Assembly (NCBI GenBank): GCA_016192065.1
Contig: JACPUX010000040.1
Location: 1 to 64,000 of the forward strand
DNA: 64,000 bases
Origin: Betaproteobacteria bacterium
Lineage (GTDB): Bacteria > Pseudomonadota > Gammaproteobacteria > Burkholderiales > Casimicrobiaceae
Direction: 5' to 3'
The notes beneath the pieces are model-generated. The model saw nothing but the letters and a program-made list of their open reading frames with translations. It was not told where the DNA came from and searched no databases. A program made the translations under genes and the position numbers. This document shows positions 25,231-40,049 of the stretch, in pieces. The first letter of the stretch is position 1. Every line of letters starts with the position of its first letter.

Positions 25231-26595
25231 ATGACTTGGAGCAACCGTAATATCCTGGCGGCGTGCCTCGCCTGTGCCTGGGGACTCGCCTGCGCGGCGG
25301 CGCCGGAACAGGAGGTGGCACGCCTGGGCAAGGACCTCACCCCCGTCGGTGCGATCAAGGCCGGCAACGCCGATGGCAGCATTCCGGAGTGGAAAGGCGG
25401 CATGACCACCATGCCATCCGGCTGGAAGCCCGGCCAGAAGCGGATCGACCCGTTCAAGGACGATAAGCCCCTGTTCGCGATCGACGCCGGCAACGTCGAC
25501 AAGTACAAGGACAAGCTCTCCGAGGGGCAGATCGCGGTGGTGAAGGCGCTGAAAGGCTACCGCATGGACGTGTACCCGACGCGCAGGAGTTGCGGCTTCC
25601 CCGATTTTGTGTACGAGCGCAGCAAAACCAACGCCCGCGAAGCCAAGCTCGCGGCCAACGGCTGGGGCGTGGAAAAGGCCATCGGGGCGGCGGTACTCTT
25701 CCCCATTCCGCAAGGCGGCGCGGAAGCGATGTGGAACCACAAGCTGCGCTACATGGGCGAAGGTCGAATCGAGCACTACGCGACCATCTTCTCCAGCAAG
25801 AGCGGCGACTTCACCCCGCTGGTGCAGGATCAGTGGACCACCATTCCCTTCCACAACAAGAACAACAAGGGCATCGAGGAAGTGTCCGGGGTGGAAATGA
25901 AGCTCCTCAACGCCGTGGTCTCCCCCGCGGCGCGTACCGGCGAGCTGATCCTGGCGCATTGGTCGATGAACGCCTCGAGCGATGCCTGGCTCTACTTCCC
26001 CGGACAGCGCCGGGTGCGCCGCGCCCCCACCTTCGCCTACGACAATCCGGTGCCCGGCTATGAAAACCTGGAGACCGTCGATCAATACCCAATGTACGCC
26101 GGGGCCATGGACCGCTACAACTGGAAGCTGGTCGGCCGGCAGGAGCTCTATATTCCTTACAACAGCTGGAAGCTCATCGACAAGAGCCGCAAGTACAAGG
26201 ACGTGTACGGCCCGGAGTTCATCAATCGCGAGCTCGTGCGCTACGAGCTGCACCGCGTCTGGAAGGTCGAAGCCACGCTCAAGGAAGGCATGCGCCACAT
26301 TTTCCCCAAACGCGTGTTCTACCTCGACGAAGATAGTTGGGCGCTGATGGTCGCCGACAACTACGACGCCCAAGGCAAGGTCTGGCGAGTGCAGGAATCG
26401 AGCCTCTGGATGGCGCCGGAAATCCCCGCCTGCGTCGGCCAGGAGTTCGTTTCCTATGACCTGAACGTCGGCCGCTACATCGGCGAAAACGCCACCCAAG
26501 AGAGACCCGAAACCGACTGGCTGGCCGGTCGCGAGGGCCGCATCGAAAAGAGCCGCTTCAACCCGGACGAGTTGCGCCGGGTGGGTGACCGTTAA
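25231..26595 (+). CDS. DUF1329 family exported protein
   Basis: This 454-aa protein has a signal peptide (ILAACLACAWGLACA) and the DUF1329 hallmark opening EVARLGKDLTPVGAIKAGNADGSIP. It has LolA/LolB-like beta-sheet character with WLYFPGQRRVRRAPTFAYDNP. Members are almost always encoded next to DUF1302 and MMPL/RND genes in proteobacteria that use hydrophobic or aromatic substrates, and probably act in the periplasm in export or in outer-membrane delivery. The ATG at 25231 is preceded by AGGAGG. It is 41 bp after the cytochrome gene and 23 bp before DUF1302. Confidence 0.85.
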   Translation: MTWSNRNILAACLACAWGLACAAAPEQEVARLGKDLTPVGAIKAGNADGSIPEWKGGMTTMPSGWKPGQKRIDPFKDDKPLFAIDAGNVDKYKDKLSEGQIAVVKALKGYRMDVYPTRRSCGFPDFVYERSKTNAREAKLAANGWGVEKAIGAAVLFPIPQGGAEAMWNHKLRYMGEGRIEHYATIFSSKSGDFTPLVQDQWTTIPFHNKNNKGIEEVSGVEMKLLNAVVSPAARTGELILAHWSMNASSDAWLYFPGQRRVRRAPTFAYDNPVPGYENLETVDQYPMYAGAMDRYNWKLVGRQELYIPYNSWKLIDKSRKYKDVYGPEFINRELVRYELHRVWKVEATLKEGMRHIFPKRVFYLDEDSWALMVADNYDAQGKVWRVQESSLWMAPEIPACVGQEFVSYDLNVGRYIGENATQERPETDWLAGREGRIEKSRFNPDELRRVGDR

Positions 26596-26618: not shown

Positions 26619-28457
26619 ATGATTAAGCAAGATCGCGGCATCGGCGCCCGGCGCGTGCTGGCCCTGGCACTCGCCACGGCGGGACTGGGCCTTTTCGCCG
26701 CCCCCACGGCCTACGCCTTCAAGTTCGAAAACGGCTCGATCTCGGGCAGCTTCGACAGTACGCTATCCCTGGGCTTCAGAAAGCGCCTGGAATCGACCAA
26801 CTGCGGCATCGTTTCCAATGACAACGGCGGTTGCGTGCCGGTGTCCGGAACACTCGGCGAACTGGTCTTTCCCAACGACCCCAACAGCTCCAATCCCGAC
26901 TTCAACTATCTCCAGTCGGATGACGGCAACCTCAACTACAAGAAAGGTGACATCGTCTCCTTTGCCCTGAAAGGCACGCACGAGCTGTTTCTCAAGGCGC
27001 CGGGCGGCTTTTCCGGCCTGGTACGGGCCTCCTGGCTGAAGGACTTCAAGGCCGACGAGACGCGGCGCACACCGCTGTCGGACGACGCCAAGGACCTCGC
27101 CGTCAACAACTGGACCTGGCTCGATGCCTGGATCGCCAAGGATCTCTCCTTCGGTGACCGTCCGGCCAAGTTCAAGCTCGGCAATCAGGTGATGAGCTGG
27201 GGCGAAGACATTTTCATCTATGGTGGCGTCAATATCACCAACGCCATCGACCTTCAGCGCGCCAGCATTCCCGGCACGCAGTTGAAGGAGATCTTCAAGC
27301 CCGCGCCCATGCTTTCCTTGAATGCCAGCGTCACCGACAATCTGAGCTTTGAAGGCTACTACCAGTGGAAGTGGAACGCCTTCACATTTCCTGCGGTCGG
27401 CACCTTCTTCTCGCCCGCCGACGTGCTGGGGCCGAGCGCGGCGCATGCCTTCGTGCCGACTTCGATCGCCAACTATTACCTCTATGGCGGCAGCGGCAAC
27501 AACCCGTTGGCCTTTGGAACGGTGGGCGACCCGGGCGGGCGCCATGGCCTGGGCGTGGCCGATCTCGCTTCCGACGCCAACCCGGCTTTCGGCGTGGCCG
27601 GAGTCGGCAGCGTGGCCTATCGCGAAGGCGTGAACAAGCCCAGCGGCGGACAGTTCGGCGCGGCCTTCCGCTACAAGGCCGACAAGCTCGGCGCCGATCT
27701 GGGTTTCTATTATCTGCGCTATCACGACAAGATTCCCTTCATCGGCTTCACCAACGCGGGCAGCAGCGCCAACCTGCTGGGTCTGACCTACTTCGAGGAC
27801 TACGGCCAGAAGCGCGATGTCTTCGGGGTATCCATGAACACCACGGTTGGCCCGGTGGCGGTGGGCGCGGAAGTGTCCTACCGGCCCAAGGACAGTGTCG
27901 CGGTCGACCCGACCGTGCCAATCGAGGGCGAGTTCTCGGTTTTCGAATACCCGGGCAAGGTGGCGCGCGGCTTCACCACCGAGAAGAAGTGGCAGATGCA
28001 TCTCACCGCCTTCTACCTCTTCGCGCCCTCGAGCCCGCTAGGCACCTTGATGACGGCTCTGGGCGCGGCGGAAGGCTACCTTTTGGCGGAAGCGGCGATG
28101 ACGGTCTATCCGAGCCTCGACCGTTCGGGTCGCGTGCCCTATCTGCTGTCCAACTATGAGTTGCCGACCAAATCCTCGTGGGGCTACGTGATTTCCACCG
28201 GCCTCACCTACCCCAATGCCTTTGGGAGCGGCTGGAACCTCGCCCCGCAGATCGACCTCACCCACGATGTCCATGGCACAACCCCCAACGCCCTGCCTTT
28301 CGTCGAGGGCCGCAAGTCGGCCGCCTTCACGCTCAACTTCGATCGTGAAAGCCGCTGGAAGGCGACCCTGGGCTTCACCCGCTTCTGGGGCGGCGGCAGC
28401 AACAACCTGATGCGCGATCGCGACTTCGCTTTCGGCAGCGTGGCGTACACCTTCTAA
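26619..28457 (+). CDS. DUF1302 family outer-membrane protein
   Basis: This 612-aa protein has a signal peptide (LALALATAGLGLFAAPTAYA), then the DUF1302 start FKFENGSISGSFDSTLSLGF. Long amphipathic beta strands follow, ending in an aromatic C-terminal residue (SVAYTF), as in outer-membrane beta-barrels. KLGNQVMSWGEDIFIYGGVN is a typical family segment. It pairs with DUF1329 upstream and the MMPL transporter downstream, and may form a transenvelope route for a hydrophobic compound. The start has AGGAG 7 nt upstream. Confidence 0.87.
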   Translation: MIKQDRGIGARRVLALALATAGLGLFAAPTAYAFKFENGSISGSFDSTLSLGFRKRLESTNCGIVSNDNGGCVPVSGTLGELVFPNDPNSSNPDFNYLQSDDGNLNYKKGDIVSFALKGTHELFLKAPGGFSGLVRASWLKDFKADETRRTPLSDDAKDLAVNNWTWLDAWIAKDLSFGDRPAKFKLGNQVMSWGEDIFIYGGVNITNAIDLQRASIPGTQLKEIFKPAPMLSLNASVTDNLSFEGYYQWKWNAFTFPAVGTFFSPADVLGPSAAHAFVPTSIANYYLYGGSGNNPLAFGTVGDPGGRHGLGVADLASDANPAFGVAGVGSVAYREGVNKPSGGQFGAAFRYKADKLGADLGFYYLRYHDKIPFIGFTNAGSSANLLGLTYFEDYGQKRDVFGVSMNTTVGPVAVGAEVSYRPKDSVAVDPTVPIEGEFSVFEYPGKVARGFTTEKKWQMHLTAFYLFAPSSPLGTLMTALGAAEGYLLAEAAMTVYPSLDRSGRVPYLLSNYELPTKSSWGYVISTGLTYPNAFGSGWNLAPQIDLTHDVHGTTPNALPFVEGRKSAAFTLNFDRESRWKATLGFTRFWGGGSNNLMRDRDFAFGSVAYTF

Positions 28458-28543: not shown

Positions 28544-30904
28544 ATGATCGAAAACACCGTCCGGCGGCTCGAGGCCTTCTTCTTTGGGCATCGGACCCTG
28601 ACCCTGGGAACGCTGCTGGCCTTTACCCTGCTGATGGCGGTCTTCGCGTCCCAGTTGCGCATGGATGCAGGCTTCGACAAGCAGTTGCCGCAGGGGCACG
28701 AATACATCCAGACCTTCAACCAGTACCGCAACGAAGTGTTCGGCGCCAATCGCATCGTGGTCGTCGTACACCCGCGCCGGGGGGAAATCTGGACGCCCGA
28801 GGGTCTCAAGAAACTCAACGACGTCACCCAGTCGGTGATGTTTCTGCCCGGCATCGACCGCCGCACCGTTTCCTCGCTCTGGACCCCCACCACCCGAGTA
28901 CTGGAGGTGACCGAGGAGGGCTTTCGCGCCGAGGACGTGATCGGCGGCGACATCACGCCCGACCAGCTCAGCCCCGAGAAGATCGCTCGTATCCGCCAGA
29001 ATGCCCTGGTTGGCGGCTACATGGGCAGCCTGGTGGCATCGGACAGCGGCGGCGCGATGGTCGTCGCCGACCTCTTGGAAACCGACCCGAGAACCCATCA
29101 GAAGCTCGATTACCTGGCTTTCGCCAAGCGCCTGGAAACCGATTTGCGCGCCAGGCACGAAGACCCCGGTTTCGAAATTCAGATCATCGGTTTCGCCAAG
29201 CAGATCGGCGACATCGCCGAAGGCGCCAAGAGCGTGGTGCAGTTCTTCGCCCTGGCTTTTGTACTCACCGCGCTGGCGGTGTACTGGTATTCGCGCTCGC
29301 TGGCGCTGACCGTGCTGCCCATGGCGTGCTCGCTGGTGTCGCTGGTCTGGCAGTTCGGCACTCTGCATCTTCTGGGCTACGGGCTCGATCCCCTGGCGGT
29401 GCTGGTGCCCTTTCTGGTCTTCGCCATCGGCGTCTCCCACGGCGTGCAGCAGATCAATTACATCGCCAAGGAAGTGTGCGCCGGCAATAGCGCCGACATT
29501 GCGGCCAAGATGAGCTTCAGCGGCCTGTTCATCCCCGGCACCATGGCCCTGGTTACGGCCTTCGTCGGGTTCGCCACGCTGACCTTGATTCCGATTCCGA
29601 TGATCCGCGAACTGGGCATCACCGCATCGATCGGCGTCGCCTACAAGATCGTTACCAATCTCATCATGCTGCCGGTCGCGGCCTCGTACTTGCGCTTCGG
29701 ACCAGAATTTGTCGAGCGCGTCCAGCGTCTGCGCGCGGCGCGTGGGCGCATCATGGCCTACTTCGGACACATCGCCACCACCCGCAACGCAGCCATCGGC
29801 ACGGTCCTGAGCCTGGTACTGTTTGCCTTCGCCTTTCACCAAAGCCAGAGCCGACATATCGGCCACCTCAAGCCCGGTGCCCCCGAACTGCATGCCGAGG
29901 CGCGCTACAACCGCGACGCCGCGGCGATCGTGGCGCACTTCGATCTGGGACTCGACGTTCTGACCGTGGTCTTTGAGACGCCCAAGGACGGCTGCTACCA
30001 GACCGAAGTCATGGCCTACATCGATCAGTTTTCCTGGCAGATGTCCAACGTGCCGGGAGTGCTTTCGGTGGCTTCAATCGCGCAACTCGCCAAGCAGGCT
30101 TATGCCGGTACCAACGAAGGCCATCCAAAGTGGACGGCGCTGGCGCTGGATGAGCGCTCGCTCGCCAATTCGGTGGGCCTGATTCCCGAAGGCACGGGGC
30201 TCTTGAACCCCGGCTGCACGGTGCTGCCGGTGAATATCTATCTCGCCGACCAGAAAGCCACCACGATCAAATCGGTGGTGCAGGCGGTGCGGGAGTTTCG
30301 CGACCGCGAGCAGCTTCCCGAGGTGAAGCTGCGGCTGGCCAGCGGCAACTCCGGCGTGCAGGCCGCCACCAACGAGGTGCTGGAGCACACCGAACTACCG
30401 ATGATGCTCTACGTCTACGCCACCATCATCATCCTGGTGCTGCTGACCTACCGCGACTGGCGCGCCATGCTCGCTTGCTGCCTGCCGCTGACGCTCGCCA
30501 CCTTCCTGGGCTATTGGTTCATGCAGGCACTGGACATCGGCCTCACCGTCGCCACCCTGCCGGTAATGGTGCTGGCGGTGGGCATCGGCGTCGACTACGC
30601 GTATTACATCTACAACCGCTTGCAAATTTACCTGGCGCAAGGCGTCGATATCGCCACCGCGTTCCGGCAATCACTGATGGAATCGGGCATCGCCACATTT
30701 TTCACGGCGGTGACGCTCTCGGTGGGCGTAGCCACCTGGTCGTTCTCCGCGCTCAAGTTTCAGGCCGACATGGGGTTGCTGCTCACCTTCATGTTCATGG
30801 TCAATATGCTCATGGCGATCACCCTGCTGCCCTCGCTGGCGGTGATGATCGATGTCCTTATCCCGCGCCGCAAACCGGTGCGTGCGCCGTTTCTCGCTCA
30901 TTGA
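28544..30904 (+). CDS. MMPL/RND-family transporter
   Basis: This 786-aa inner-membrane transporter is a single-chain RND/MMPL protein with two repeats. Each has one helix, a periplasmic loop, and a five-helix bundle: the first around VVQFFALAFVLTALAVYWYS and FLVFAIGVSHGVQQINYIAK, the second around MLYVYATIIILVLLTYRDW and VMVLAVGIGVDYAYYIYNRL. The GxxxDYxxY motif with Asp in helix 4 of the second half is the proton-relay signature. In the first half the Asp is replaced (GVSHGVQQ). It co-occurs with DUF1302/DUF1329 and probably moves a hydrophobic compound. Substrate unknown. Confidence 0.88.
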   Translation: MIENTVRRLEAFFFGHRTLTLGTLLAFTLLMAVFASQLRMDAGFDKQLPQGHEYIQTFNQYRNEVFGANRIVVVVHPRRGEIWTPEGLKKLNDVTQSVMFLPGIDRRTVSSLWTPTTRVLEVTEEGFRAEDVIGGDITPDQLSPEKIARIRQNALVGGYMGSLVASDSGGAMVVADLLETDPRTHQKLDYLAFAKRLETDLRARHEDPGFEIQIIGFAKQIGDIAEGAKSVVQFFALAFVLTALAVYWYSRSLALTVLPMACSLVSLVWQFGTLHLLGYGLDPLAVLVPFLVFAIGVSHGVQQINYIAKEVCAGNSADIAAKMSFSGLFIPGTMALVTAFVGFATLTLIPIPMIRELGITASIGVAYKIVTNLIMLPVAASYLRFGPEFVERVQRLRAARGRIMAYFGHIATTRNAAIGTVLSLVLFAFAFHQSQSRHIGHLKPGAPELHAEARYNRDAAAIVAHFDLGLDVLTVVFETPKDGCYQTEVMAYIDQFSWQMSNVPGVLSVASIAQLAKQAYAGTNEGHPKWTALALDERSLANSVGLIPEGTGLLNPGCTVLPVNIYLADQKATTIKSVVQAVREFRDREQLPEVKLRLASGNSGVQAATNEVLEHTELPMMLYVYATIIILVLLTYRDWRAMLACCLPLTLATFLGYWFMQALDIGLTVATLPVMVLAVGIGVDYAYYIYNRLQIYLAQGVDIATAFRQSLMESGIATFFTAVTLSVGVATWSFSALKFQADMGLLLTFMFMVNMLMAITLLPSLAVMIDVLIPRRKPVRAPFLAH

Positions 30905-30929
30905 GCACCACACCAGCTTCGGGGCCAAG

Positions 30930-31409
30930 ATGCCGTTCCAGAATCTGCTCGCCAAACTTCGTCAACCGCCTGCCGCGGCACCCACCGAGTTGCCCTATCC
31001 CCGCCCGGAGCTTGCGGTGGCGGCTCTGCTGATCGAAGCCGCGCAAGTCGATGGCAAGATCCCCGAGGCCGAAAGCGCGGTGATCCGTCACCTCGTCCAC
31101 GAGCATTTCCACCTGCCGCAAGCGGAAACCGAACAATTGTTGCGCATTGCCGAAGGCGAGTTCAGCGCCGCGCTCGATGATTGGGTGTTCACGCAGACGG
31201 TACGCGAAAGCTTCGACGCCAGCGAACGCCAAACGGTGCTGGAAATGATGTGGCAAGTGGTCTATGCCGACGGCAGCCTGGTCCGCTTTGAAGACGCGCT
31301 CCTTAACCGCAGCGCCCACGCCCTGGGGCTGAGCCCGCAGGAAGCCGACACCGCACGCGAACGCGCCTACGCCCGCTATTGCGACGGGCGTGACGAGGGG
31401 GCGGCATGA
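30930..31409 (+). CDS. TerB-family (tellurite resistance-like) protein
   Basis: This 159-aa helical protein has a TerB-like domain: AALLIEAAQVDGKIPEAESAVI, later QVVYADGSLVRFEDALLNRSAHALGLS. The DGKxxxxE and DGxxxxxE motifs are metal-binding in TerB. Despite the name, tellurite resistance is not implied; stand-alone members are of unknown function. It starts 26 bp after the MMPL gene (ATG 30930 chosen from the conserved start, not the overlapping frame at 30852). Confidence 0.8.
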   Translation: MPFQNLLAKLRQPPAAAPTELPYPRPELAVAALLIEAAQVDGKIPEAESAVIRHLVHEHFHLPQAETEQLLRIAEGEFSAALDDWVFTQTVRESFDASERQTVLEMMWQVVYADGSLVRFEDALLNRSAHALGLSPQEADTARERAYARYCDGRDEGAA

Positions 31410-31519
31410 GCAGGAAGAAGGAAGCAGGGGCTCCCGTCGGGGTTGCGACCGCTGGCGAATGCCATCACCCGACCGCTTGGCGTATGGACGAACAGGATCG
31501 TTCGGAGGGAGCGGCATGA
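31406..31519 (+). other. 37-codon frame bounded by ATGA overlaps and a direct repeat
   Basis: An ATG overlaps the TerB stop (ATGA) and its own TGA overlaps the ATG at 31516. The same short sequence, GGAGCGGCATGAGCAG or GGGGCGGCATGAGCAG, occurs at both ends, so the 110-bp segment looks like a duplication or insertion product. The predicted peptide (MSRKKEAGAPVGVATAGECH...) has no family. It is listed as structure rather than as a gene. Confidence 0.3.
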
Positions 31520-32676
31520 GCAGAGCGTTGGCGTTCACCATGGTCCGCAGTACCCGTCTCCTGGTGGATTCGGCCCGGCGGGCCTTGCTCGACCCTACGA
31601 CCGCGGCGATCTGGCGCCCCTCACTGGCGCGAACCCGACCCCAAGTATGGTTTGAGCGGGCGTGCAGCGACCGCGAATCCACCATGACGCCCTCCCACTC
31701 GCCGCGCCCCATGATCAGCATCGCCCACCTCTTGGCACGAGTGCTCGGCTGTTTGGTGATCGGCTTGGGCACACCGCTTTGGGCACAAACGCCGGCGGCC
31801 ACGAGCTTTCTCACCAACCCGGTATTCGTGGCGCCGCTCGCCAACAAGGCGCCGCTGCTGGCCGCCGCTGCGGCCGGTGCGCGCCTGGTGGCGGCAGGCG
31901 ACTTCGGCACCGTGCTGATCTCCGACGACGCGGGCAAGTCCTGGCGCCAGGGCAAGACCCCCACGCGCGCCACGCTTACGTCGCTGTATTTTCTCGACCC
32001 CAAGAAGGGCTGGGCCGCCGGTCATGGCGGGGTGATGATCGGCACCGTAGACGGCGGCGAAACCTGGACCCGGCTGGCCGATCTGGGCGCCGGCGTGGTG
32101 CCGTTCGCGCTGCGTTTCGAGAACGCCGCGCAGGGCCTGGTGGTGGGTGCTTTCGGTTTCGCCGCCACGACCCAGGACGGCGGCAAGACCTGGAAGGAGT
32201 TGCGCGTCTCCACCGGGGAGTTCGCCGACCAGCATCTCTACGCCATCTTCACCGGGCCGGGCAAGCGCCTGTGGGTCACCGCCGAGGGCGGCAACCTCTA
32301 CTACTCCGACGATGGCACGGTTTCCTTCAAGGCGCTGAAGCTCCCCTACAAAGGCTCGATCTGGGGTGGTCTGGCGCTACCCGAAAACACCGTGCTGGTT
32401 TGGGGCATGCGCGGCAACATTCTCAAGAGCGCCGATGGCGGCAGAACCTGGAGTGCGGCGGCGAGCGGCACCGATCAGGCGCTCACCGCCGGCCTCGTGC
32501 GCGGCGCGGAAATTGTCCTGGTGGGCCTGGGCGGCGCAGTGGTAAAGAGCCAAGACGGCGGCACGAGCTTCCAGGCGCATACCCGCCCCGAGCGTCCGGC
32601 ACATACGGCGCTGCTCCAGGCGCAGGGCAGTCTCATCAGTTTCACGTTGGCCGGCATCGGCGGCGAAATCAAGTAG
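31516..32676 (+). CDS. YCF48/BNR-type beta-propeller exported protein
   Basis: This protein (386 aa from ATG 31516) has a YCF48-like beta-propeller with repeats such as GTVLISDDAGKSWRQGK, GVMIGTVDGGETWTRLAD, TTQDGGKTWKELR and ILKSADGGRTWSAA (BNR/Asp-box motifs). Such proteins accompany DUF1302/DUF1329/MMPL genes and are presumed periplasmic accessory factors. The signal peptide is at IAHLLARVLGCLVIGLGTPLWA, which would fit an ATG at 31711 (321 aa). The only strong ribosome site (GGAGG, 31504-31508) precedes 31516. The extra N-terminus runs through a GGTGGATTC repeat, so it may be recent. The true start is therefore uncertain. Confidence 0.75.
   Translation: MSRALAFTMVRSTRLLVDSARRALLDPTTAAIWRPSLARTRPQVWFERACSDRESTMTPSHSPRPMISIAHLLARVLGCLVIGLGTPLWAQTPAATSFLTNPVFVAPLANKAPLLAAAAAGARLVAAGDFGTVLISDDAGKSWRQGKTPTRATLTSLYFLDPKKGWAAGHGGVMIGTVDGGETWTRLADLGAGVVPFALRFENAAQGLVVGAFGFAATTQDGGKTWKELRVSTGEFADQHLYAIFTGPGKRLWVTAEGGNLYYSDDGTVSFKALKLPYKGSIWGGLALPENTVLVWGMRGNILKSADGGRTWSAAASGTDQALTAGLVRGAEIVLVGLGGAVVKSQDGGTSFQAHTRPERPAHTALLQAQGSLISFTLAGIGGEIK
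31563..31683. repeat. Repeat element with GGTGGATTC / GAATCCACC ends (copy 1)
   Basis: GGTGGATTC followed by the small hairpin GGCCC-GGC-GGGCC (31563-31584) is paired at a distance with GAATCCACC at 31675-31683. The same elements occur compactly at 34734-34765. It lies within the 5' part of the YCF48-like frame. Confidence 0.55.
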
Positions 32677-32709: not shown

Positions 32710-34140
32710 ATGAATACCTATTTGAACACCATCAACGGCGAGCAAGTTGATTCGAGCGAGCGTTTCGAATCGATCAACCCGGCCACCGGCGAACCCATCG
32801 GCCGCGTGCCGGTTTCCACGCGCCCGCAAGTCTCCGCCGCCGTTGCCGCCGCACGAGCGGCACAACCCGCCTGGGCCGCCAAGCCCGACGCGGAGCGCAA
32901 GGCGCTGATGATGAAAGTGGCGGAGATCATCAAAGCCAACGCGCCCTACTTGGCCGAGTGGGTGACCCGCGAACAGGGCAAACCCCTGGGCGGCGTGGGT
33001 CCGGATCAGGTGCCCGGCGCGCGCTTTGAATTGTGGGGCTGTGAAGTCTGGACCCAGGTGCCGGCAAGCCTTGATCTCCCGGTGGAAGTGGCTTTCGAAG
33101 ACGACACCCGCCGCGATGAAGTACACCGCAAGCCCTATGGCGTGGTGGCCGCCGTCGCGCCCTGGAACTGGCCGCTCCTGATCGCCATCTGGCAGATCAT
33201 TCCGTCCATACGCGCCGGCAACACAGTGGTGATCAAGCCTTCAGAGTACACCTCCATCGGCACCCTGGAACTGGTGCGCCTGATCAGCCAGGCGCTGCCC
33301 AAGGGCGTGGTCAACACCGTCAGCGGGCCGGGCAGTGTGGGTTCGTGGCTGGTATCCGACCCCGGCATCGACAAAATCATGTTTACTGGGTCCGGCCCCA
33401 CCGGCGCGAAAATCGCCGAGGCGGCGGCGAAGAACCTCACCCCCACCACCATGGAACTGGGCGGTAACGATGCCGCGATCATGCTGCCCGACGCCGATCC
33501 CAAGGCCATGGCCATGGGGCTTTTCTGGGGCGCCTTCCTCAACATGGGCCAGACCTGCGCCTGTGCCAAGCGCCTCTATGTGCCCGAGAATCTGTTCGAA
33601 CCGACCGTGGCGGCGCTCAAGGAGCTCGCGGAAATGATGCCCATGGGCGACGGCATGCAGGAAGGCACGGTGATGGGTCCGATTCAAAACAAGATGCAGT
33701 ACGACAAAGTGGTGTCGCTGGTGGAAAGCGCCAAGGCCCAGGGCGGCACCATCGTGTGCGGTGGCACGCCCAAGGGCGGCCCCGGCTACTTCTTTCCCCT
33801 GACCATCGTCACCGGTCTCAAGGACGGCGATCGGCTGGTGGATGAAGAGCAGTTCGGGCCGGTGCTGCCGGTAATCAAATACCGCGAAGTCGAAGACGCG
33901 ATCGCTTCCGCCAACCGTCTCGACGCGGGTCTGGGCGCTTCGGTCTGGTCGACCGACATCAACCGTGCCAAGGAGGTAGCCGGTCGCATTCAGGCCGGCA
34001 CGGTGTGGATCAACCAGCACGGCATGATCCACCCCATGGTGCCTTTCGGCGGCATCAAGGGTTCGGGCTACGGCGTGGAGTTCGGCGTCGATGGTCTTAA
34101 GGCGGTCACCCAGCCGCAGGTGCTCAGCATCAAGAAATGA
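32710..34140 (+). CDS. NAD-dependent aldehyde dehydrogenase
   Basis: This 476-aa enzyme has all ALDH motifs: VAPWNWPLLIAIWQIIPSI, TVVIKPSEYTSIGTLELVRL, MFTGSGPTGAKI, the base Glu in MELGGNDAAI and the catalytic Cys in NMGQTCACAKRLYV. It should oxidise an aldehyde to the acid; in this operon the natural substrate is the aryl- or alkyl-acetaldehyde made by the TTQ dehydrogenase. It lacks a signal peptide, so it acts in the cytoplasm, and the aldehyde must cross the membrane. The start has GGAGGG 8 nt upstream. The stop overlaps the next ATG (ATGA). Confidence 0.9.
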   Translation: MNTYLNTINGEQVDSSERFESINPATGEPIGRVPVSTRPQVSAAVAAARAAQPAWAAKPDAERKALMMKVAEIIKANAPYLAEWVTREQGKPLGGVGPDQVPGARFELWGCEVWTQVPASLDLPVEVAFEDDTRRDEVHRKPYGVVAAVAPWNWPLLIAIWQIIPSIRAGNTVVIKPSEYTSIGTLELVRLISQALPKGVVNTVSGPGSVGSWLVSDPGIDKIMFTGSGPTGAKIAEAAAKNLTPTTMELGGNDAAIMLPDADPKAMAMGLFWGAFLNMGQTCACAKRLYVPENLFEPTVAALKELAEMMPMGDGMQEGTVMGPIQNKMQYDKVVSLVESAKAQGGTIVCGGTPKGGPGYFFPLTIVTGLKDGDRLVDEEQFGPVLPVIKYREVEDAIASANRLDAGLGASVWSTDINRAKEVAGRIQAGTVWINQHGMIHPMVPFGGIKGSGYGVEFGVDGLKAVTQPQVLSIKK

Positions 34141-34541
34141 GTTTGTGCGCCGAGGTCTCTCTTGCGGTGTGGCGGCGACGAGTTTTGTCGCCAAGTGCCA
34201 TGCCGCATCTCCTGCGAGGCCTCACCCTGGCGGCGGTGCTTCTGGCACCGCCGCCACTTTTTGCGACGCAAACCGCAGCCACCCTCTGGGCGCTCAACTG
34301 CCGCGGCTGTCACCTGCCCCCGGATGAATACCGCGCCGCCGCGCCACGCGGCGCCGGGCACTTCGCGCAAACTGAAACCGGCCGGATTTTCTTCATCGCC
34401 ATGCCCCCGCCCGGTACCTACCTGTCCGGCACGGAGGACGCTCGGCTCGTGCGCGAAATCCTCAACTGGAAAACGAGCTGTCACGTTATTCTGCAAGACG
34501 CGCCGCTGATTCGATACAGCGGCGGTCGATTTGTAAAATGA
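34137..34541 (+). CDS. Small c-type cytochrome
   Basis: This 134-aa protein (113 aa from ATG 34200) has a signal peptide (LLRGLTLAAVLLAPPPLFA) and one heme-binding motif, CRGCH, in LWALNCRGCHLPPDEY. The axial Met may be in FFIAMPPPGTYLSG. The length after the leader is about 90 residues, typical of a small class I cytochrome. The ATG at 34137 overlaps the ALDH stop and 34200 begins a more normal leader; I cannot decide. Its own stop overlaps the next gene (ATGA). It probably carries electrons between the dehydrogenase and the redox proteins downstream. Confidence 0.72.
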   Translation: MSLCAEVSLAVWRRRVLSPSAMPHLLRGLTLAAVLLAPPPLFATQTAATLWALNCRGCHLPPDEYRAAAPRGAGHFAQTETGRIFFIAMPPPGTYLSGTEDARLVREILNWKTSCHVILQDAPLIRYSGGRFVK

Positions 34542-35854
34542 AGCGAGGTGGGCCCGTCCCCTGGGCGCTGAGGCTTCTTCGGTCGGGGGTTTGGCGGTCC
34601 AGTCTTGATCGATTCGCCCGCGCCTGGCGCGGGCTAAATCCACCCCACCACTGCCAGTGTGGCAGGGTGGATCGAGCCGGGACCTCTACCCCCGGCGGGC
34701 TCGCCCACTTGTGGCACACGCACGGCGTTGTCGGGTGGATTCAGGCCCGCAGGGCCGAATCCACCAAGCACTGGCACAGCACCGCCCTGCTGCTCCAGTT
34801 CCTCGCCTTGGCGGAATGCAGCATCGCCAACGCCAACCCGCCAACACTCGAAGCGCTTCCGCGCCCCGCGATGGTCCAGCCGGCGCTGGCGGAACTGGGC
34901 CGGCATTTGTTCTTCGAACCACGCTTGTCTGGCGACGGGAGCCGCAGTTGCGCCAGCTGCCATGTGCCCGAACTGGGCTTTGCCGACGGCCTGGCGCTGT
35001 CGCGCGGCTACAACGGCACTGAGTATTTCCGCAACGCGCCGAGCCTGCTTTCCGTTCGCCTCAAGCGCCGCCTCACCTGGGATGGCCGGCTCGACGGAGG
35101 CGACCTCGCCACCGCCGTGCGCGACATGGTCACCGAGGCGCATTTCATGAACGCCGATGCGCGCCTCGTTCAGGAACGCGTGCGCCAGATCCCCGGCCTC
35201 ATGGCGCTGTGGCGAAAGGCCTTGGGTCATTCGAGCGAGCCTTATGGGCCGCAAATTTTTAATGCCATCGCCGAATACCTCAAGACGCTGGACGCACCCG
35301 ACACGGCACTCGACCGCTACTTGCGGGGCGAGCCGGTGCCGCTGCCGCCCATGGTGCAGGAAGGGCTTGCCCTCTTCCAGGGCAAGGCGGCCTGCCACCG
35401 CTGTCACTCCGGTCCGCTGGGGAGCGACGGCAAGGCGCATCGCCTGGGCCTGCCCGAACACCCGGCCGTCCTCGCCGAACCCCTGCGCAGCATCAGCCTC
35501 TTGCGCCACCACGCCACTATGGGCGTGCCCAATTACATGCACGAGCGCAAGGATCTGGGCGCTTACGTACTCAGCAAGACCGAGCTCGATCGTGGACGCT
35601 TCTACACACCCTCGCTGCGAATGCTGGTCCACACCGGGCCCTACATGCACAACGGCCTCCTTGCCACGCTCGAAGAGGTGGTGGCCTTTTACGATGCCGG
35701 CGGCGGGCCCGGCGGGGATCTCACGCCTTTGCACCTCAGCGCACGAGAACGCGCCGCGCTGGTTGCTCTACTCAAGGCCTGGTCGGCGCCGCTGCCGGTC
35801 GTGACGGTGCCGCCGGCCCATGATTATGCCGTGCTGCCGGCGAGTCAGCGATGA
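34538..35854 (+). CDS. Diheme cytochrome c peroxidase/MauG-like protein (IdrP1-like)
   Basis: This 438-aa protein (from the overlapping ATG 34538) contains a diheme peroxidase: first heme CASCH in SCASCHVPELGFADGLALSR, second CHRCH in GKAACHRCHSGPLG, and the family ending FYTPSLRMLVHTGPYMHNGL with a conserved Met. The leader-like stretch TALLLQFLALAECSIANA lies near residues 83-100, behind about 80 residues that read through a GGTGGATTC repeat and its hairpins. The repeat seems to have been inserted between the coupled start codon and the signal peptide without breaking the frame. Its neighbours (a second peroxidase, Rieske, molybdoenzyme) match the IdrP1P2 pair of iodate reducers. A role in TTQ maturation, like MauG, is an alternative. 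Confidence 0.78.
   Translation: MKRGGPVPWALRLLRSGVWRSSLDRFARAWRGLNPPHHCQCGRVDRAGTSTPGGLAHLWHTHGVVGWIQARRAESTKHWHSTALLLQFLALAECSIANANPPTLEALPRPAMVQPALAELGRHLFFEPRLSGDGSRSCASCHVPELGFADGLALSRGYNGTEYFRNAPSLLSVRLKRRLTWDGRLDGGDLATAVRDMVTEAHFMNADARLVQERVRQIPGLMALWRKALGHSSEPYGPQIFNAIAEYLKTLDAPDTALDRYLRGEPVPLPPMVQEGLALFQGKAACHRCHSGPLGSDGKAHRLGLPEHPAVLAEPLRSISLLRHHATMGVPNYMHERKDLGAYVLSKTELDRGRFYTPSLRMLVHTGPYMHNGLLATLEEVVAFYDAGGGPGGDLTPLHLSARERAALVALLKAWSAPLPVVTVPPAHDYAVLPASQR
34638..34765. repeat. GGTGGATTC repeat element with two hairpins (copy 2)
   Basis: The first hairpin, ATCCACC...CTGCCA-GTG-TGGCAG-GGTGGAT, spans 34638-34671. The second (34734-34765) is a 9+5 bp near-perfect palindrome: GGTGGATTC-A-GGCCC-GCA-GGGCC-GAATCCACC. 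The element lies inside the 5' end of the peroxidase frame and is related to the copy at 31563-31683. Confidence 0.7.
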
Positions 35855-36951
35855 GGTGCATCGCCCTGGTCCTTTCGTTTTGCGTGCAACTCGTCTGGGC
35901 GCAGGGCCCAGGCCTCTTGCCGCCGGTGCCGATACCCGCCGACAACCCCATGAGTGCCGCCAAAGTGGAACTCGGACGGCTGCTGTTCTTCGACCCGCGG
36001 CTCTCGGGGGACGGCTCCACCGCCTGCGCCTCCTGCCATCTGCCGAACCTGGGCTGGGGAGAACGCAGTGCGGTGTCGCGCGGTTATCCAGGCACCAGCC
36101 ATTGGCGCAATTCGCAGACGCTCTGGAACACCGCGTTTTATGCCCGGCTCTTCTGGGATGGCGCGGCCGGCAGCCTCGAAGCCCAGGCGCAGTCGGCGGC
36201 GGAAGGCGCGGTGGCGGGCAACGGTGACCTGGCGATGATGGAAATGCGCCTGCGCCATGTGCCCGAGTACGTGCGCCGCTTTCGTGAAGTTTTCGGCAGT
36301 GAGTGGCCGCGCATCCAGCATGCCTGGATGGCCATCGCCGCCTTCGAGCGCAGCTTGGTGAGCGACCCCCGTCGCGTTCCTTTCGATCGCTGGCAAGCCG
36401 GCGACAAGACGGCGCTGGGGGCACTGGCTTTGGCGGGCTATGAGCTTTTTGGCGGCAAGGCGCGCTGCATCGCTTGCCACACCGGGGCGCTCTTTTCCGA
36501 CCAGGCGTTTCACGCCCTGGGTGTGCCCCGATTGCCGCAGGCCGACAGCCAGGTGCTGCATCAGATCACCGCGCGTTGGCAGAATCTGCAACGCGGCGTC
36601 TCGCGCGAGCGATACCGCGCCAGCGACGAAGACCTCGGGCTCGAGTACGTCACCCGCGATGCCCGCGATCGCGGCAAATTCCGCACCCCTAGCTTGCGCG
36701 AACTGAAGCACAGCGCCCCATACATGCACAACGGCGTTTTCGCGAACCTCGCCGAAGTGGTCGATTTCTTCGACCGCGGCGGCGGGAACGGGCCGAACAA
36801 ATCGCCGCTGTTGACGCCCTTGGGTTTGAGCGCCGAAGAAAAGCGCGCCCTCGTCGCCTTTCTCGAAAGCCTGAGCATGGATGACCCGCCACACCTAGCC
36901 CCGCCCGCCCTGCCGCCGACCCAAGCCCTGGAGCCTCCCCATGGCCGATGA
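35851..36951 (+). CDS. Diheme cytochrome c peroxidase (IdrP2-like)
   Basis: This 366-aa periplasmic protein has a signal peptide (CIALVLSFCVQLVWA) and two heme motifs, Cys59-ASCH and Cys206-IACH (CIACHTGALFSDQAFHALGV), the CcpA/MauG fold. FRTPSLRELKHSAPYMHNGV has the Met expected to ligate a heme in CcpA-type enzymes, rather than the Tyr of MauG. It should reduce H2O2 or a related oxidant using cytochrome electrons. It overlaps the first peroxidase (ATGA) and the Rieske gene (11 bp), so the four redox genes are coupled. In iodate reducers such peroxidases are thought to remove reactive intermediates. Confidence 0.85.
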   Translation: MRCIALVLSFCVQLVWAQGPGLLPPVPIPADNPMSAAKVELGRLLFFDPRLSGDGSTACASCHLPNLGWGERSAVSRGYPGTSHWRNSQTLWNTAFYARLFWDGAAGSLEAQAQSAAEGAVAGNGDLAMMEMRLRHVPEYVRRFREVFGSEWPRIQHAWMAIAAFERSLVSDPRRVPFDRWQAGDKTALGALALAGYELFGGKARCIACHTGALFSDQAFHALGVPRLPQADSQVLHQITARWQNLQRGVSRERYRASDEDLGLEYVTRDARDRGKFRTPSLRELKHSAPYMHNGVFANLAEVVDFFDRGGGNGPNKSPLLTPLGLSAEEKRALVAFLESLSMDDPPHLAPPALPPTQALEPPHGR

Positions 36952-37447
36952 ACCCGCCTGCCTCGCCAGGCGCGAATTTTTGCTGACCGGCGGCAAGCTG
37001 GTGTTGCTGGCGAGTGTCGCCGGGTTGCCCACGCCGCTTTTGGCGCAACGCGCCGAGTTCGGCGCGCAGCGGCTCTCGCGTCTCGATGAACTGACTTTGG
37101 GCAAGGGCTTGTGGTTCGATTATCCGCGCCCCGGCTTGGCCAACGTATTGGTGAAACTCGGCGTGCCGGCCGGCGGCGGCATCGGTCCGGAGCGCGACAT
37201 CGTCGCCTTCAGCGCACGCTGCACGCACCTGGGCGGCGACTTGGGCGGCAGCCTGCAAGCCGCGCAGCAAGTGTTGGGCCCCTGCCCGAGGCACCTCACC
37301 ACTTTCGACCTCACCCGCCATGGCGTGGTGATCACCGGCCACGCCACCCAAAGCCTGCCGCAAGTGGTGCTGGATTTGCGGGGCTCGGAACTATTTGCCG
37401 TGGGCATGATGGGCCTGGTGTTTGGCGCCGGAGCCACGTATGGCTGA
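36941..37447 (+). CDS. Tat-exported Rieske iron-sulfur subunit (IdrB/AioB-like)
   Basis: This 168-aa protein is the small subunit for the molybdoenzyme encoded next. It begins with a twin-arginine signal (Arg10-Arg11 in LARREFLLTGGKLVLLASVA) and carries a Rieske [2Fe-2S] site, Cys94-Thr-His96 (CTHLGG) and Cys115-Pro-Arg-His118. The signal should export the folded pair together, since the large subunit has none. Similar subunits are AioB of arsenite oxidase and IdrB of iodate reductase. It overlaps the peroxidase gene by 11 bp and the large-subunit start by 8 bp. The second motif lacks the Cys-x2-His-x-Gly disulfide-linked form of bc1 Rieske proteins (CPRHLTTF), as in other arsenite-oxidase-type members. 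Confidence 0.87.
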   Translation: MADEPACLARREFLLTGGKLVLLASVAGLPTPLLAQRAEFGAQRLSRLDELTLGKGLWFDYPRPGLANVLVKLGVPAGGGIGPERDIVAFSARCTHLGGDLGGSLQAAQQVLGPCPRHLTTFDLTRHGVVITGHATQSLPQVVLDLRGSELFAVGMMGLVFGAGATYG

Positions 37448-40049
37448 ACTCGCGCCTCCCCGGCCGCCGAAGGGCGCCGATCAGTTCACCACGGCTTGCG
37501 ACTATTGCGTGGTGGGTTGCGCTTATCGCGTCTGGCGCTGGCCGGTGAAGGCGGGCGGCGCCCCGGACGACACCGTGCCTTGGGCCAATCCGGCACAACA
37601 CAACCTCATCTCCTGGCGGGGCGAAGCTCATCACGTGCTGGTGCTGCCCGACCCCGAGGCGCACGCCGTCAACCCGGGGGGCAACCACTCGATGCGCGGC
37701 GGCACCCTGGCGCAAAAATGCCACAACCCCACCAATCGCACCCGCGAGCGGCTTGGCACGCCGCTCTTGCGCGTCGCTGGCCAACTGGTGCCGGTGAGCT
37801 GGGATGCGGCCATCGAGATCATGGCGCGGGTGTCGCAACACGTCTTGAAGCACCACGGCGAACATGCCTGGGGCATCAAGGCCTATTCCTACCAATACTT
37901 CGAAAACACCTACGCCATCACCAAGCTCGCCTTCGATGCCGTGGGCACCCCGGCCTTCGCGCCCCACGACAAATGCGCCAACACCAATGATGCCGCCGGG
38001 CTCGACGACGCCGGCCTGGAAGCTTTTGCGCCGTCCTATGAAGATTGGGGCGCCTGCGAAGTATTGTTCTGCTCCGGCACCGACCCCTTCGAGACCAAGA
38101 GCACGCTGTTCACGCAATGGATCATGCACGGCGCCAGGCCGGACAAGACCCTGATCTTCGCCACGCCGCACCGGACCATGGGTGTGGCCTGGGGCGAGCG
38201 GGCTGGCGGGCTGTGGCTGCCGGTGCTGCCCGGCACCGACACCCTGCTGCACAACGCCATCGCCCGCATCATCGTGGAGCGCGGCTGGCAGGACCAGGCT
38301 TTCATCGACCGCTGGATCGCCCAGCGCTGGGAAGTCGACCAGGGCCTGGGCCGCGGCACGCGCAACACACCTTGGCAGTGGCGCACCACCTGGGGTACGT
38401 TTCAAAGCGATTGGGCCGACTATCGCGCCTTTGTGCTCGGGCGCGATGAACATCGCCTGGCGGATGCCGCGCGCCTCACCGGCGTGCCGGCCGAGAAGAT
38501 GCTGCGCGCCGCCCAACTCCTGGCCGCTCCGCGCGCCGATGGCTCGCGGCCCAAGGCCTCGTTCATGCTGGAGAAAGGCAACTACTGGTCGAATAATTAT
38601 CTCAACAGCGCCTCTTTCGCCGCCCTAGGCCTCATCTGCGGCGCCGGCAACCGGGCCGGGCAAGTGATCGGCCGTGGCGGCGGACACCAGCGCGGCATGG
38701 TGAGCGCACCGGGTCACCCGGGGTGGCTGTCGCCCGAGAAATACTCCGGGCGGCGCAAGAAACCTTTGAACCTCGACCGCTGGCTGATCGACGGCAAGCT
38801 GCGTTTCGCCTGGGTCTTCGGCACCACCTGGATCGGCGCCATGGCCGCTTCCAAGGAATTGGAACGCGCCATCGCGCGACACACCGTGGACCAGCGCGAG
38901 CAAGTCGGCGACACCGACCCCGCCGCCGCGGCTGCGGCCCTGATCGCGCGCATCGAGGCCGGCGGCCTGATGTTGGTCGATTCCGACATCTACCCCGTGG
39001 CCCCGCTCAACACGCGTTATGCCGATTTGGTGCTGCCCGCGGCGACCTGGGGCGAAGCCGACTTCACGCGTTGCAACGGCGAGCGTCGCTTGCGCTTATA
39101 CCAGGCTTTCGCCGATGCGCCGGGTGAGGCCAAACCCGATTGGTGGGCAGTGCAGGCCTTCGCCCGGCGCATGGGCTGGGGCGAGCGCTTTGCCTGGACT
39201 TCGGCGAGCGCGGTCTTCGAAGAGGCGGCCCGCCACTCGCGCGGCGGTGCCTACGATTACCACGAGTTGGTGCAGGAAGCGCGGCGGCAGGGCACAACCG
39301 GCCACGCGCTGCTGGCGCGTATGGGCAGCGACGGCATCCAGACCCCGGTGCGACGCGCGCACGGCCGACTCTTCGGCACACCGCGTCTGCATGACCCCGA
39401 TAACGCCCTGGCTGACGCCAACGCCTGGCGCAATAAACTCATCCAGGCTTTCAATACCCACAGCGGCAAGGCGGTGCTGCTCAAGTCCCCCTGGAACTTC
39501 CCCGGCTGGAGCGAATTTTACGAAGCCGCGAAACCACGCCCGGAAAAAAACGAACTCTGGATCACCAACGGCCGCGTCAACGAAAACTGGCAAAGCGGCT
39601 TCGACGACTTGCGCAAGCCCTACACCGCGGCGCGGGGCCTGCCACAAATGCTGTTCATGAATCCCGAGGATGCCGCCGCGCGGGGTATCGCCAGCGGTGA
39701 TCGGGTGCGCGTGGTCAACGACACCGTTTACGTATTGACCGGCATGCCAGTCGGCGTGGAAAGCACCGACCAGCACTTCAAGGCCTTGCTCGCCGCCGGG
39801 CACATCAAGGTGACCCAAGGCGATTTCGAAGCCGTCGCCATCCTCGACCCGGGCATGCGCCAAGGGGTCGCCAAAGCCGGCTTCAACCATCCCGCGGGCC
39901 CCGCCAATGCCGTCTGCCACGCCGTGCCTGACCCCTTGACCAACAACTACCGCTACAAACTCGGGCGCGGACGGGTGGAGCGGCTGGGGGTTTCGGAGTT
40001 TGTCGAGGACCTGCAGGGGGTGAGTCTCAAGGCGCGGGGTTTGATCTGA
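37440..40049 (+). CDS. Arsenite-oxidase-family molybdopterin oxidoreductase, iodate reductase IdrA-like
   Basis: This 869-aa periplasmic molybdoenzyme of the DMSO reductase superfamily aligns with arsenite oxidase AioA along its length. Cys20-x2-Cys23-x3-Cys27 and Ser84 (NHSMRGG) match the three-cysteine [3Fe-4S] site of AioA, where Ser replaces the fourth Cys. Of the four arsenite-binding residues (His, Glu, Arg, His), His176, Arg412 and His416 (GRGGGHQ) are kept, but the Glu is Asp184. Length matches IdrA (about 97 kDa) better than AioA (about 825 aa). It is the last gene of the + strand run, follows a Rieske gene and two diheme peroxidases as in idr clusters, and has no twin-arginine signal of its own. 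Iodate reduction is the leading guess, not proven. Confidence 0.8.
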   Translation: MAELAPPRPPKGADQFTTACDYCVVGCAYRVWRWPVKAGGAPDDTVPWANPAQHNLISWRGEAHHVLVLPDPEAHAVNPGGNHSMRGGTLAQKCHNPTNRTRERLGTPLLRVAGQLVPVSWDAAIEIMARVSQHVLKHHGEHAWGIKAYSYQYFENTYAITKLAFDAVGTPAFAPHDKCANTNDAAGLDDAGLEAFAPSYEDWGACEVLFCSGTDPFETKSTLFTQWIMHGARPDKTLIFATPHRTMGVAWGERAGGLWLPVLPGTDTLLHNAIARIIVERGWQDQAFIDRWIAQRWEVDQGLGRGTRNTPWQWRTTWGTFQSDWADYRAFVLGRDEHRLADAARLTGVPAEKMLRAAQLLAAPRADGSRPKASFMLEKGNYWSNNYLNSASFAALGLICGAGNRAGQVIGRGGGHQRGMVSAPGHPGWLSPEKYSGRRKKPLNLDRWLIDGKLRFAWVFGTTWIGAMAASKELERAIARHTVDQREQVGDTDPAAAAAALIARIEAGGLMLVDSDIYPVAPLNTRYADLVLPAATWGEADFTRCNGERRLRLYQAFADAPGEAKPDWWAVQAFARRMGWGERFAWTSASAVFEEAARHSRGGAYDYHELVQEARRQGTTGHALLARMGSDGIQTPVRRAHGRLFGTPRLHDPDNALADANAWRNKLIQAFNTHSGKAVLLKSPWNFPGWSEFYEAAKPRPEKNELWITNGRVNENWQSGFDDLRKPYTAARGLPQMLFMNPEDAAARGIASGDRVRVVNDTVYVLTGMPVGVESTDQHFKALLAAGHIKVTQGDFEAVAILDPGMRQGVAKAGFNHPAGPANAVCHAVPDPLTNNYRYKLGRGRVERLGVSEFVEDLQGVSLKARGLI

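What the first reader, a model, noticed from the sequence alone, without database searches (positions are those of the whole stretch)
34538..40049. Iodate-reductase-like redox module in an unusual operon
Two diheme peroxidases, a Tat-exported Rieske protein and an AioA-family molybdoenzyme are coupled by overlapping stop/start codons. That is the gene set of IdrABP1P2, but in P-P-B-A order. The large subunit keeps the AioA Cys3-Ser [3Fe-4S] ligands and three of the four arsenite-site residues, with Asp184 in place of Glu. This fits an iodate reductase or an unnamed relative better than arsenite oxidase.
Basis: partly seen in the sequence, partly recalled or inferred. Interest (0 to 1): 0.85.

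Follow-up and report, generated by a model that had tools for sequence, protein, structure and literature searches.

The report
Iodate-reductase module tied to amine-dehydrogenase cluster
A bacterial enzyme set of the kind that uses iodate as a substitute for oxygen turns out to belong to a side branch whose genes keep being found near genes for an enzyme that oxidises aromatic amines, which suggests that the two work together.

Summary
The four genes are real. The large subunit falls inside the iodate reductase (Idr) family, in a clade shared with Denitromonas iodatirespirans IR-12 (idrA knockout published) and apart from arsenite oxidase. Asp184 is the usual Idr letter (65 of 83 other Idr rows; Glu in 8 of 8 AioA rows). 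P-P-B-A is the normal idr order, so the "unusual operon" falls away.

What is unusual lies outside the given coordinates. The window belongs to a distinct Idr clade of 10 sequences with a small CxxCH gene at the operon head (9 of 9 loci with data). In the window the operon ends a co-directional run of 16 genes (21783-40049) that begins with a TTQ aromatic amine dehydrogenase (AADH). Nine of the clade's 10 genomes carry AADH, against 6 of 71 other Idr genomes. Gene order differs among them, and the linked AADHs are not one clade (p-AU 0.0002) and conflict with the IdrA tree, so the linkage was rebuilt or kept through exchange. In the inner clade IdrP1 has Phe in place of its MauG-type haem-ligand Tyr (5 of 5).

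Most likely: a periplasmic reductase of iodate (or a like oxyanion) fed by amine oxidation. Membership is well supported; the coupling mechanism is inferred; no activity was tested.

The parts
21783..23036 (+). aromatic amine dehydrogenase heavy chain (TTQ enzyme; start codon uncertain)
   Evidence: Pfam PF06433 8.3e-50; best solved relatives are AADH heavy chains, E 3.7e-85, against methylamine dehydrogenase 6.7e-38
23033..23578 (+). MauE-like accessory membrane protein
   Evidence: 53% identical to the L030 protein that matches PF07291 MauE; no NCBIfam match of its own; Pfam was run only on a wrong-frame ORF here
23589..24188 (+). MauD accessory thiol-disulfide protein (start approximate)
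   Evidence: NCBIfam TIGR02661 207.8 bits over the cut-off of 188.6, on 23577-24188
24204..24740 (+). aromatic amine dehydrogenase light chain; conserved Trp and Cys of TTQ light chains kept
   Evidence: PF02975 6.7e-53; AADH light chain 2.1e-55; three Trp columns invariant in 32 of 32 light chains aligned; TIGR02659 below cut-off, 175.7 against 196.85
24821..25189 (+). c-type cytochrome of the AADH cluster (HCVVCH; coordinates cover the mature part only)
   Evidence: weak NCBIfam cytochrome matches; counterparts in many AADH loci
25213..26595 (+). DUF1329 protein
   Evidence: PF07044 1.6e-135
26619..28457 (+). DUF1302 protein
   Evidence: PF06980 1.1e-138
28544..30904 (+). MMPL/RND-type transporter
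   Evidence: PF03176 1.1e-18
30852..31409 (+). TerB-domain protein
   Evidence: PF05099 4.1e-29
31516..32676 (+). YCF48-like protein (start approximate)
   Evidence: PF14870 4.3e-18 on the longer ORF 31390-32676
32710..34140 (+). aldehyde dehydrogenase; would oxidise the aldehyde made by AADH (inferred)
   Evidence: PF00171 1.1e-138; 82% identical copies beside idr in L032 and L104
34200..34541 (+). C: small CxxCH (presumed haem c) protein with a leader-like N terminus, at the operon head; mark of this Idr clade
   Evidence: 9 of 9 loci with upstream data; no Pfam match on the longer ORF and no NCBIfam match; AlphaFold model poor, pLDDT 55
34538..35854 (+). idrP2-type diheme protein, MauG-type axial Tyr kept; leader carries a repeat insertion
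35851..36951 (+). idrP1-type diheme protein; axial-ligand Tyr replaced by Phe
36941..37447 (+). idrB-type Rieske subunit with Tat-like leader (RREFL; CTHLG...CPRH)
37440..40049 (+). idrA-type molybdoenzyme large subunit
34545..34780 (.). in-frame insertion (bounds approximate) with a palindromic repeat in the idrP2 leader
   Evidence: exact pattern match at 34733-34765; pattern with up to 3 mismatches at 12 distinct places of the genome (15 strand matches), backward control 0; absent from the congeneric locus L029

Best explanation
34200-40049 is an Idr module (C-P2-P1-B-A) of a distinct clade of the dissimilatory iodate reductase family, working as the downstream part of an aromatic amine dehydrogenase gene cluster. 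Shown by sequence: Idr membership, IdrA-type pocket letters, Tat-like leader on the Rieske subunit, diheme partners, and physical linkage to AADH that recurs in the clade. Inferred: AADH oxidises a primary amine in the periplasm; its electrons pass through the cluster's c-type cytochromes (24821-25189 and perhaps C) to the Rieske subunit IdrB and on to the molybdenum site of IdrA, which reduces iodate (or a similar oxyanion); P1 and P2 deal with H2O2 or other oxidants made on the way; the aldehyde dehydrogenase removes the aldehyde. IdrA would thus be a terminal reductase wired to amine oxidation in the periplasm rather than fed only through quinol, bc1 and c551.
For: Membership: careful tree of 43 rows puts the window in a 23-row clade with IR-12 at 100/99, L058 (named Roseovarius sp.) just outside, AioA rows apart at 100/100; the 10-sequence window clade has 100/100. 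IR-12 knockout and complementation: PMC8692401 section 8. Pocket: H176, R412, H416 invariant; D184 in 65 of 83 other Idr rows (three of them duplicates), Ser 17, Ala 1, Glu in 8 of 8 AioA; Idr-type S150/Y151/Y153/D177/D215/R418 kept; the 5 positions that mark the inner clade (556, 630, 734, 802, 851) are none of the pocket positions compared. Coupling: AADH light chain (PF02975) in the window genome and the 8 other clade genomes besides G192, against 5 of 31 and 1 of 40 other Idr genomes; Fisher p 2e-8, ignoring kinship. Same contig in 8 of 9 (contig lengths); in L057 the Idr contig ends inside the AADH heavy chain. AADH genes within 6 kb in 6 of the 80 loci, all in this clade (some loci have shorter flanks). 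In L031 the first ATG of C lies 5 nt after the light-chain stop. Several gene orders. Linked AADHs are not one clade: p-AU 0.000166, 3.1e-5 without four long or outlying rows; the IdrA grouping is rejected on AADH data (1.5e-6) and the AADH grouping on IdrA data (6.8e-5). Purifying selection on all five operon genes, dN/dS 0.11-0.23 (one species pair). Two genomes hold a second, non-window-type Idr (Sulfuritalea bin.273 L032+L053; G192 L116+L120).
Against: No activity, expression or protein-contact data. The basal member's genome G192 (94% complete) has the C-P-B-A operon but no PF02975 match. In the inner clade P1 has lost the Tyr that the other intact IdrP1 keep, so P1 at least has changed. 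No c551, sigma-54 regulator or MoaA match within 6 kb in window-clade loci; these are also missing from some genomes of the verified clade (PMC8801600). The same AADH cluster exists without a linked Idr in 9 loci, so it does not need Idr. NCBIfam's AioA model is passed, barely (359.3 against 359.05 bits). The AU and Fisher tests rest on few independent events and on MAGs; groups for the AU tests were named after the trees were seen.
Confidence: 0.5

Rival explanations
1. TTQ-maturation module: the two MauG-type diheme proteins (with C, and IdrAB as redox partner) build or activate the tryptophan tryptophylquinone of the AADH, and oxyanion reduction is secondary or gone.
For: IdrP1/IdrP2 carry Tyr at the position of MauG Tyr294, IdrP2 in 61 of 62 and IdrP1 in 65 of 67 Idr loci outside the window clade (the two IdrP1 exceptions are broken frames). 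In 3 of the 9 AADH-linked genomes (G000, G818, and G816 apart from one weak fragment) the only CCP/MauG-family proteins found are P1 and P2; G829, with an unlinked AADH, likewise has only its own IdrP1/IdrP2. Repeated linkage to a TTQ enzyme.
Against: Window P1 has Phe there (5 of 5 inner-clade loci) and P2 has His in 3 of 5. The other 6 AADH-linked genomes have further diheme proteins. AADH genomes without Idr can lack Tyr-type diheme proteins: only Met-type among the regions fetched in 5 of 12 genomes, Tyr-type in 7 (not every hit fetched), and G265 (99% complete) has no match to either family model. TIGR03791 scores of P1 and P2 are far below its cut-off.
Confidence: 0.15
2. An ordinary iodate reductase; the AADH cluster is only a fellow passenger on a mobile catabolic island.
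For: Canonical idr is horizontally mobile with poorly conserved neighbours (PMC8692401 section 10; PMC8801600 passages). Six other Idr genomes carry AADH, in five of them on a contig of another length than the Idr contig (the sixth not compared).
Against: Linkage holds in 9 genomes with several gene orders and at least three AADH lineages, with AADH and IdrA trees in conflict; chance linkage would not be rebuilt.
Confidence: 0.2
3. The molybdoenzyme of this clade has another substrate (another oxyanion, N-oxide or amine-derived compound).
For: Long stem branch (0.31-0.34) of the inner clade; co-occurrence with another Idr in two genomes; new neighbours.
Against: No pocket position compared separates the clade from other IdrA.
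Confidence: 0.12
4. Arsenite oxidase (AioAB).
For: TIGR02693 just over cut-off; best solved relatives are AioA and AioB.
Against: Outside the AioA rows at 100/100; Asp for Glu and Idr-type pocket letters; diheme partners; IdrB below the TIGR02694 cut-off (94.6 against 95.65).
Confidence: 0.03

Closest known systems
IdrABP1P2 dissimilatory iodate reductase (Denitromonas IR-12, Pseudomonas SCT, Azoarcus DN11, Aromatoleum TC-10, Roseovarius azorensis)
   Same: Gene set, P-P-B-A order, Tat-like IdrB leader, IdrA-type pocket letters, tree position with IR-12 (the others' sequences were not in hand)
   Different: Own clade; C gene at the operon head; AADH linkage; no c551, sigma-54 regulator or MoaA match nearby; Phe at the haem-ligand position of P1; peroxidases fused in L032, L033, L104 and L128
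AioAB arsenite oxidase (NT-26)
   Same: Family, [3Fe-4S] Cys3-Ser, His/Arg/His of the site
   Different: Asp for Glu, diheme partners, separate clade
TTQ aromatic amine dehydrogenase cluster (AADH known from solved structures; that these are from Alcaligenes faecalis is recalled)
   Same: Heavy and light chains, MauE/MauD accessories, cytochrome, aldehyde dehydrogenase nearby
   Different: Extended by DUF1329, DUF1302, MMPL and YCF48 genes, and here by an Idr module
MauG / MbnH-type diheme enzymes
   Same: Tyr at the axial-ligand position in IdrP2 and in most IdrP1/IdrP2 of the family; TIGR04039 (MbnH family) matched at 5e-43 and 3e-62, far below cut-off; 6e1c first among solved relatives of the C-terminal halves, CCPs first for the whole proteins
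   Different: Scores far below the MauG and MbnH cut-offs; Tyr replaced by Phe in the window's P1

Membership tests
IdrABP1P2 iodate reductase | IdrA groups with experimentally verified IdrA, apart from AioA | tested here: met
   (IR-12 = L048; other verified sequences were not in hand)
IdrABP1P2 iodate reductase | two diheme peroxidase-like genes directly before idrB and idrA | tested here: met
   canonical order (PMC10989891; PMC8801600)
IdrABP1P2 iodate reductase | Tat leader on IdrB and none on IdrA | tested here: met
   RREFL motif in B; A starts MAELAPPRPP with no leader (read by eye; no predictor run)
IdrABP1P2 iodate reductase | Sec leaders on P1 and P2 | tested here: inconclusive
   P1 leader plausible by eye; P2 leader displaced by the insertion
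IdrABP1P2 iodate reductase | Idr-type pocket residues (Asp184 for AioA Glu, others) | tested here: met
IdrABP1P2 iodate reductase | reduces iodate | not testable with these tools
   needs enzyme or cells
IdrABP1P2 iodate reductase | island accessories c551, two-component system, moaA (optional) | tested here: not met
   no match in window-clade loci; also missing from some of the ten genomes of the verified clade
AioAB arsenite oxidase | Glu at the arsenite site and placement in AioA | tested here: not met
TTQ aromatic amine dehydrogenase | heavy and light chain nearest AADH, conserved Trp and Cys of the light chain | tested here: met
MauG | TIGR03791 cut-off and Tyr294 | tested here: not met
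   164.7 (P2) and 211.6 (P1) bits against 443.85; Tyr in P2, Phe in P1

The most novel reading that the evidence does not exclude
A clade of Idr enzymes has been recruited repeatedly to work with TTQ aromatic amine dehydrogenases: either a periplasmic amine-to-iodate (or other oxyanion) electron chain, or an Idr-derived helper of the quinone-cofactor enzyme. No link between iodate reductase and amine dehydrogenase turned up in the two paper searches made for it.
Probability: 0.55. Interest if true: 0.78.

Novelty: new variant of a known kind. Interest (0 to 1): 0.62.

Why it matters
If right, iodate reductase is not only a stand-alone respiratory island: one branch, seen here in betaproteobacterial MAGs, is tied to periplasmic oxidation of aromatic amines. 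[quoted passage not shown] PMC8801600 passages); a direct periplasmic donor would be a new route. It also makes the unsettled role of IdrP1/IdrP2 testable: by sequence they are of the MauG/MbnH ligand type (Tyr), not the Met/His type of classical cytochrome c peroxidases.

Tried and rejected
Rejected: 'unusual order' (it is the canonical order); 'Asp184 marks a new enzyme' (commonest Idr letter). P1/P2 as the only possible TTQ makers: attractive because G000 and G818 show no other diheme protein of the family and G816 only a weak fragment, but lowered because AADH genomes without Idr can lack Tyr-type diheme proteins, and one shows no member of the family. Arsenite oxidase: rejected on the tree and the pocket. 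The C protein matched no Pfam model (longer ORF) or NCBIfam model, and its AlphaFold model was poor (pLDDT 55), so no fold search was made; its haem binding rests on CxxCH alone. R. azorensis IdrA was not fetched, so a second verified reducer as bracket is replaced by L058, named Roseovarius sp., a stand-in. The promoter and terminator scan found no more than shuffles give. Looking for mauG on Paracoccus plasmid 1 failed; the MauG alignment came. In one search two ORFs (22960-23592 + and 21645-23033 -) were wrong-frame or antisense and gave nothing.

Dropped rows: L010 and L011 were left out of trees and counts as copies of L029 and L046. The careful IdrA trees used 43 and 24 of the sequences in hand. 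Of the 83 other Idr rows, three are duplicates (80 distinct). Four long or outlying AADH rows were dropped after one search had used them; L197 was left out of both for want of genes. In one search I fetched 20 diheme regions from 12 of the 19 AADH genomes without Idr that have such matches. The 71 other Idr genomes include G824, whose Idr L034 is identical to L120 of G192, so it is probably G192's assembly again. AioA rows are so called from annotation or tree position; only NT-26 (L112) is known to me as a studied enzyme (recalled).
Full report
Observation. The four overlapping genes are present and intact at the stated places. Pfam and NCBIfam give two CCP/MauG diheme proteins, a Rieske subunit and a molybdopterin oxidoreductase. 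The AioA equivalog model is only just passed by A (359.3 against 359.05 bits) and just missed by B (94.6 against 95.65). The best solved relatives are AioA and AioB.

Placement. One scan of the species-genome collection found 131 relatives and returned the best 80 loci, among them Denitromonas iodatirespirans IR-12 (L048), whose idrA deletion abolishes growth on iodate and is complemented (PMC8692401 section 8). Three plasmid Idr and four plasmid AioA loci were added, with four AioA-like loci. Quick tree of 92 rows, careful trees of 43 and 24: the window lies inside Idr, in a 10-sequence clade (100/100) within a 23-row clade that holds IR-12 (100/99). The AioA rows are apart (100/100).

Residues. 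Asp184 aligns with the AioA Glu. It is Asp in 65, Ser in 17 and Ala in 1 of 83 Idr rows outside the window clade (62, 17 and 1 of 80 distinct), and Glu in 8 of 8 AioA. H176, R412 and H416 are invariant. None of the five positions that set the inner window clade apart is among the pocket positions compared. Identity of function is thus likely but not shown.

Operon. P-P-B-A is the canonical order (PMC10989891 passages; PMC8801600 passages). The window clade adds a small CxxCH gene, C, before P2: in the window and the seven clade loci with upstream sequence, confirmed by a profile, and in the basal member L128, so 9 of 9; among the other Idr loci with upstream sequence none has it there. The two diheme genes are one ORF in L032, L033 and L104, in L128, and in a Rokubacteria locus elsewhere in the tree, L061.

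Haem ligand. The MauG alignment places Tyr294 of MauG on the Tyr of P2's AFYD (chain positions 260-295). Tyr294 is conserved in MauGs and replaced by Met or His in CCPs (PMC7567364 passage); the Met of 1iqc aligns with the Phe of P1. Outside the window clade IdrP2 has Tyr in 61 of 62 loci (Lys in L091) and IdrP1 in 65 of 67, the two exceptions being broken frames (L070, L081). In the inner window clade IdrP1 has Phe in 5 of 5, IdrP2 Tyr in 2 and His in 3. P1 is nevertheless under purifying selection between two species of the genus (dN/dS 0.144; A 0.106, B 0.229, P2 0.150, C 0.221), so this looks like change rather than decay.

Neighbourhood. Upstream on the same strand lie AADH heavy chain, MauE-like, MauD, AADH light chain, a cytochrome c, DUF1329, DUF1302, MMPL, TerB, YCF48 and aldehyde dehydrogenase, with gaps of -53 to 106 nt over 16 genes from 21783 to 40049 (some starts approximate). 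The heavy and light chains are closer to aromatic amine dehydrogenase than to methylamine dehydrogenase, and the light chain keeps the conserved Trp and Cys.

Is the linkage more than chance? The light-chain family is in the window genome and the congener, and in 8 of 8 genomes of the clade loci, the congener among them. It is in 5 of 31 and 1 of 40 other Idr genomes. The basal G192 lacks it. It is on the Idr contig in 8 of 9 clade genomes (contig lengths), and in L057 the Idr contig ends inside the heavy chain. In five of the six other cases it lies on a contig of a different length from the Idr contig; the sixth was not compared. Within 6 kb, AADH genes occur in 6 of the 80 loci, all in the clade. 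In the order, PF02975 occurs in 24 of 399 genomes (23 over the cut-off) and Idr in 6 of 399; only the two genomes of the window's genus have both.

Several arrangements are seen: Idr after ALDH (window, L029); Idr before an oppositely directed AraC gene and AADH (L030, L035, L057); AADH light chain followed after 5 nt by C (L031); ALDH on the other strand, Idr, then AADH (L032, L104); and the same contig about 17 kb apart (L033). G192's operon has a YCF48-like gene upstream at the contig end. Concatenated AADH proteins of 31 loci reject a single clade of Idr-linked AADHs (p-AU 0.000166; 3.1e-5 without four long or outlying rows). The IdrA grouping {window, L029, L031, L030, L035, L057} is rejected on AADH data (1.5e-6), and the AADH grouping {L032, L104, L030, L035, L057} is rejected on IdrA data (6.8e-5). 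So the two modules have separate histories yet sit together: re-association or in-place exchange, which points to a joint function.

Mechanism. Preferred: AADH electrons reach IdrB and IdrA through c-type cytochromes, with iodate or a like oxyanion as acceptor. The rival, in which P1/P2 serve TTQ maturation, gains from the Tyr ligand trait of the family and from G000 and G818 showing no other diheme protein of the family (G816 only a weak fragment); the other 6 linked genomes do have others. It loses from the Tyr changes and from AADH genomes without Tyr-type diheme proteins: of 12 genomes looked at, 7 had a Tyr-type and 5 only Met-type proteins among the regions fetched, and G265 shows no member of the family.

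Local damage. The idrP2 leader of this genome carries an insertion with a palindromic repeat found at 12 distinct places of the genome and absent from L029. The frame stays open, but export of P2 in this very strain is in doubt.

Literature. No paper in the library holds both 'iodate reductase' and 'amine dehydrogenase'. The one with 'iodate' and 'methylamine dehydrogenase' mentions iodate only in a reference title (passages). Subscription papers were not searchable.

Noticed in passing
34545-34780: In-frame insertion with a palindromic repeat (12 places in the genome) in the idrP2 leader; absent from the congeneric L029.
   Followed up: partly
34538-36951 and the rows: IdrP1 and IdrP2 across the sampled Idr family carry Tyr at the MauG ligand position, although they are called cytochrome c peroxidases.
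   Followed up: partly
L089, L091-L096, L098-L100, L102, L103, L105, L106, L108, L124, L125: 17 of 83 Idr rows outside the window clade have Ser at the Asp184 position, most of them in a deep branch; they may differ in function.
   Followed up: no
L032 with L053; L116 with L120: Two genomes carry both a window-type and another Idr.
   Followed up: partly
L144-L147, L149, L195, L198, L203, L204: AADH-DUF1329-DUF1302-MMPL clusters without a linked Idr (9 loci, 8 with YCF48, 6 with ALDH), no MauG-family match on the fetched stretches; how their TTQ is made is unclear.
   Followed up: partly
37440-40049 and 36941-37447 against L029: dS of idrA and idrB (0.38, 0.43) is about half that of the nine other genes compared (0.74-1.36), as if this stretch had been exchanged more recently.
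   Followed up: no
L109, L110, L111: idr genes on plasmids of Azonexus, Thiothrix and Vibrio; the Azonexus idrA is annotated as arsenate reductase (azurin) large subunit.
   Followed up: no
L070, L081: Broken reading frames in the IdrP1 genes of two loci.
   Followed up: no
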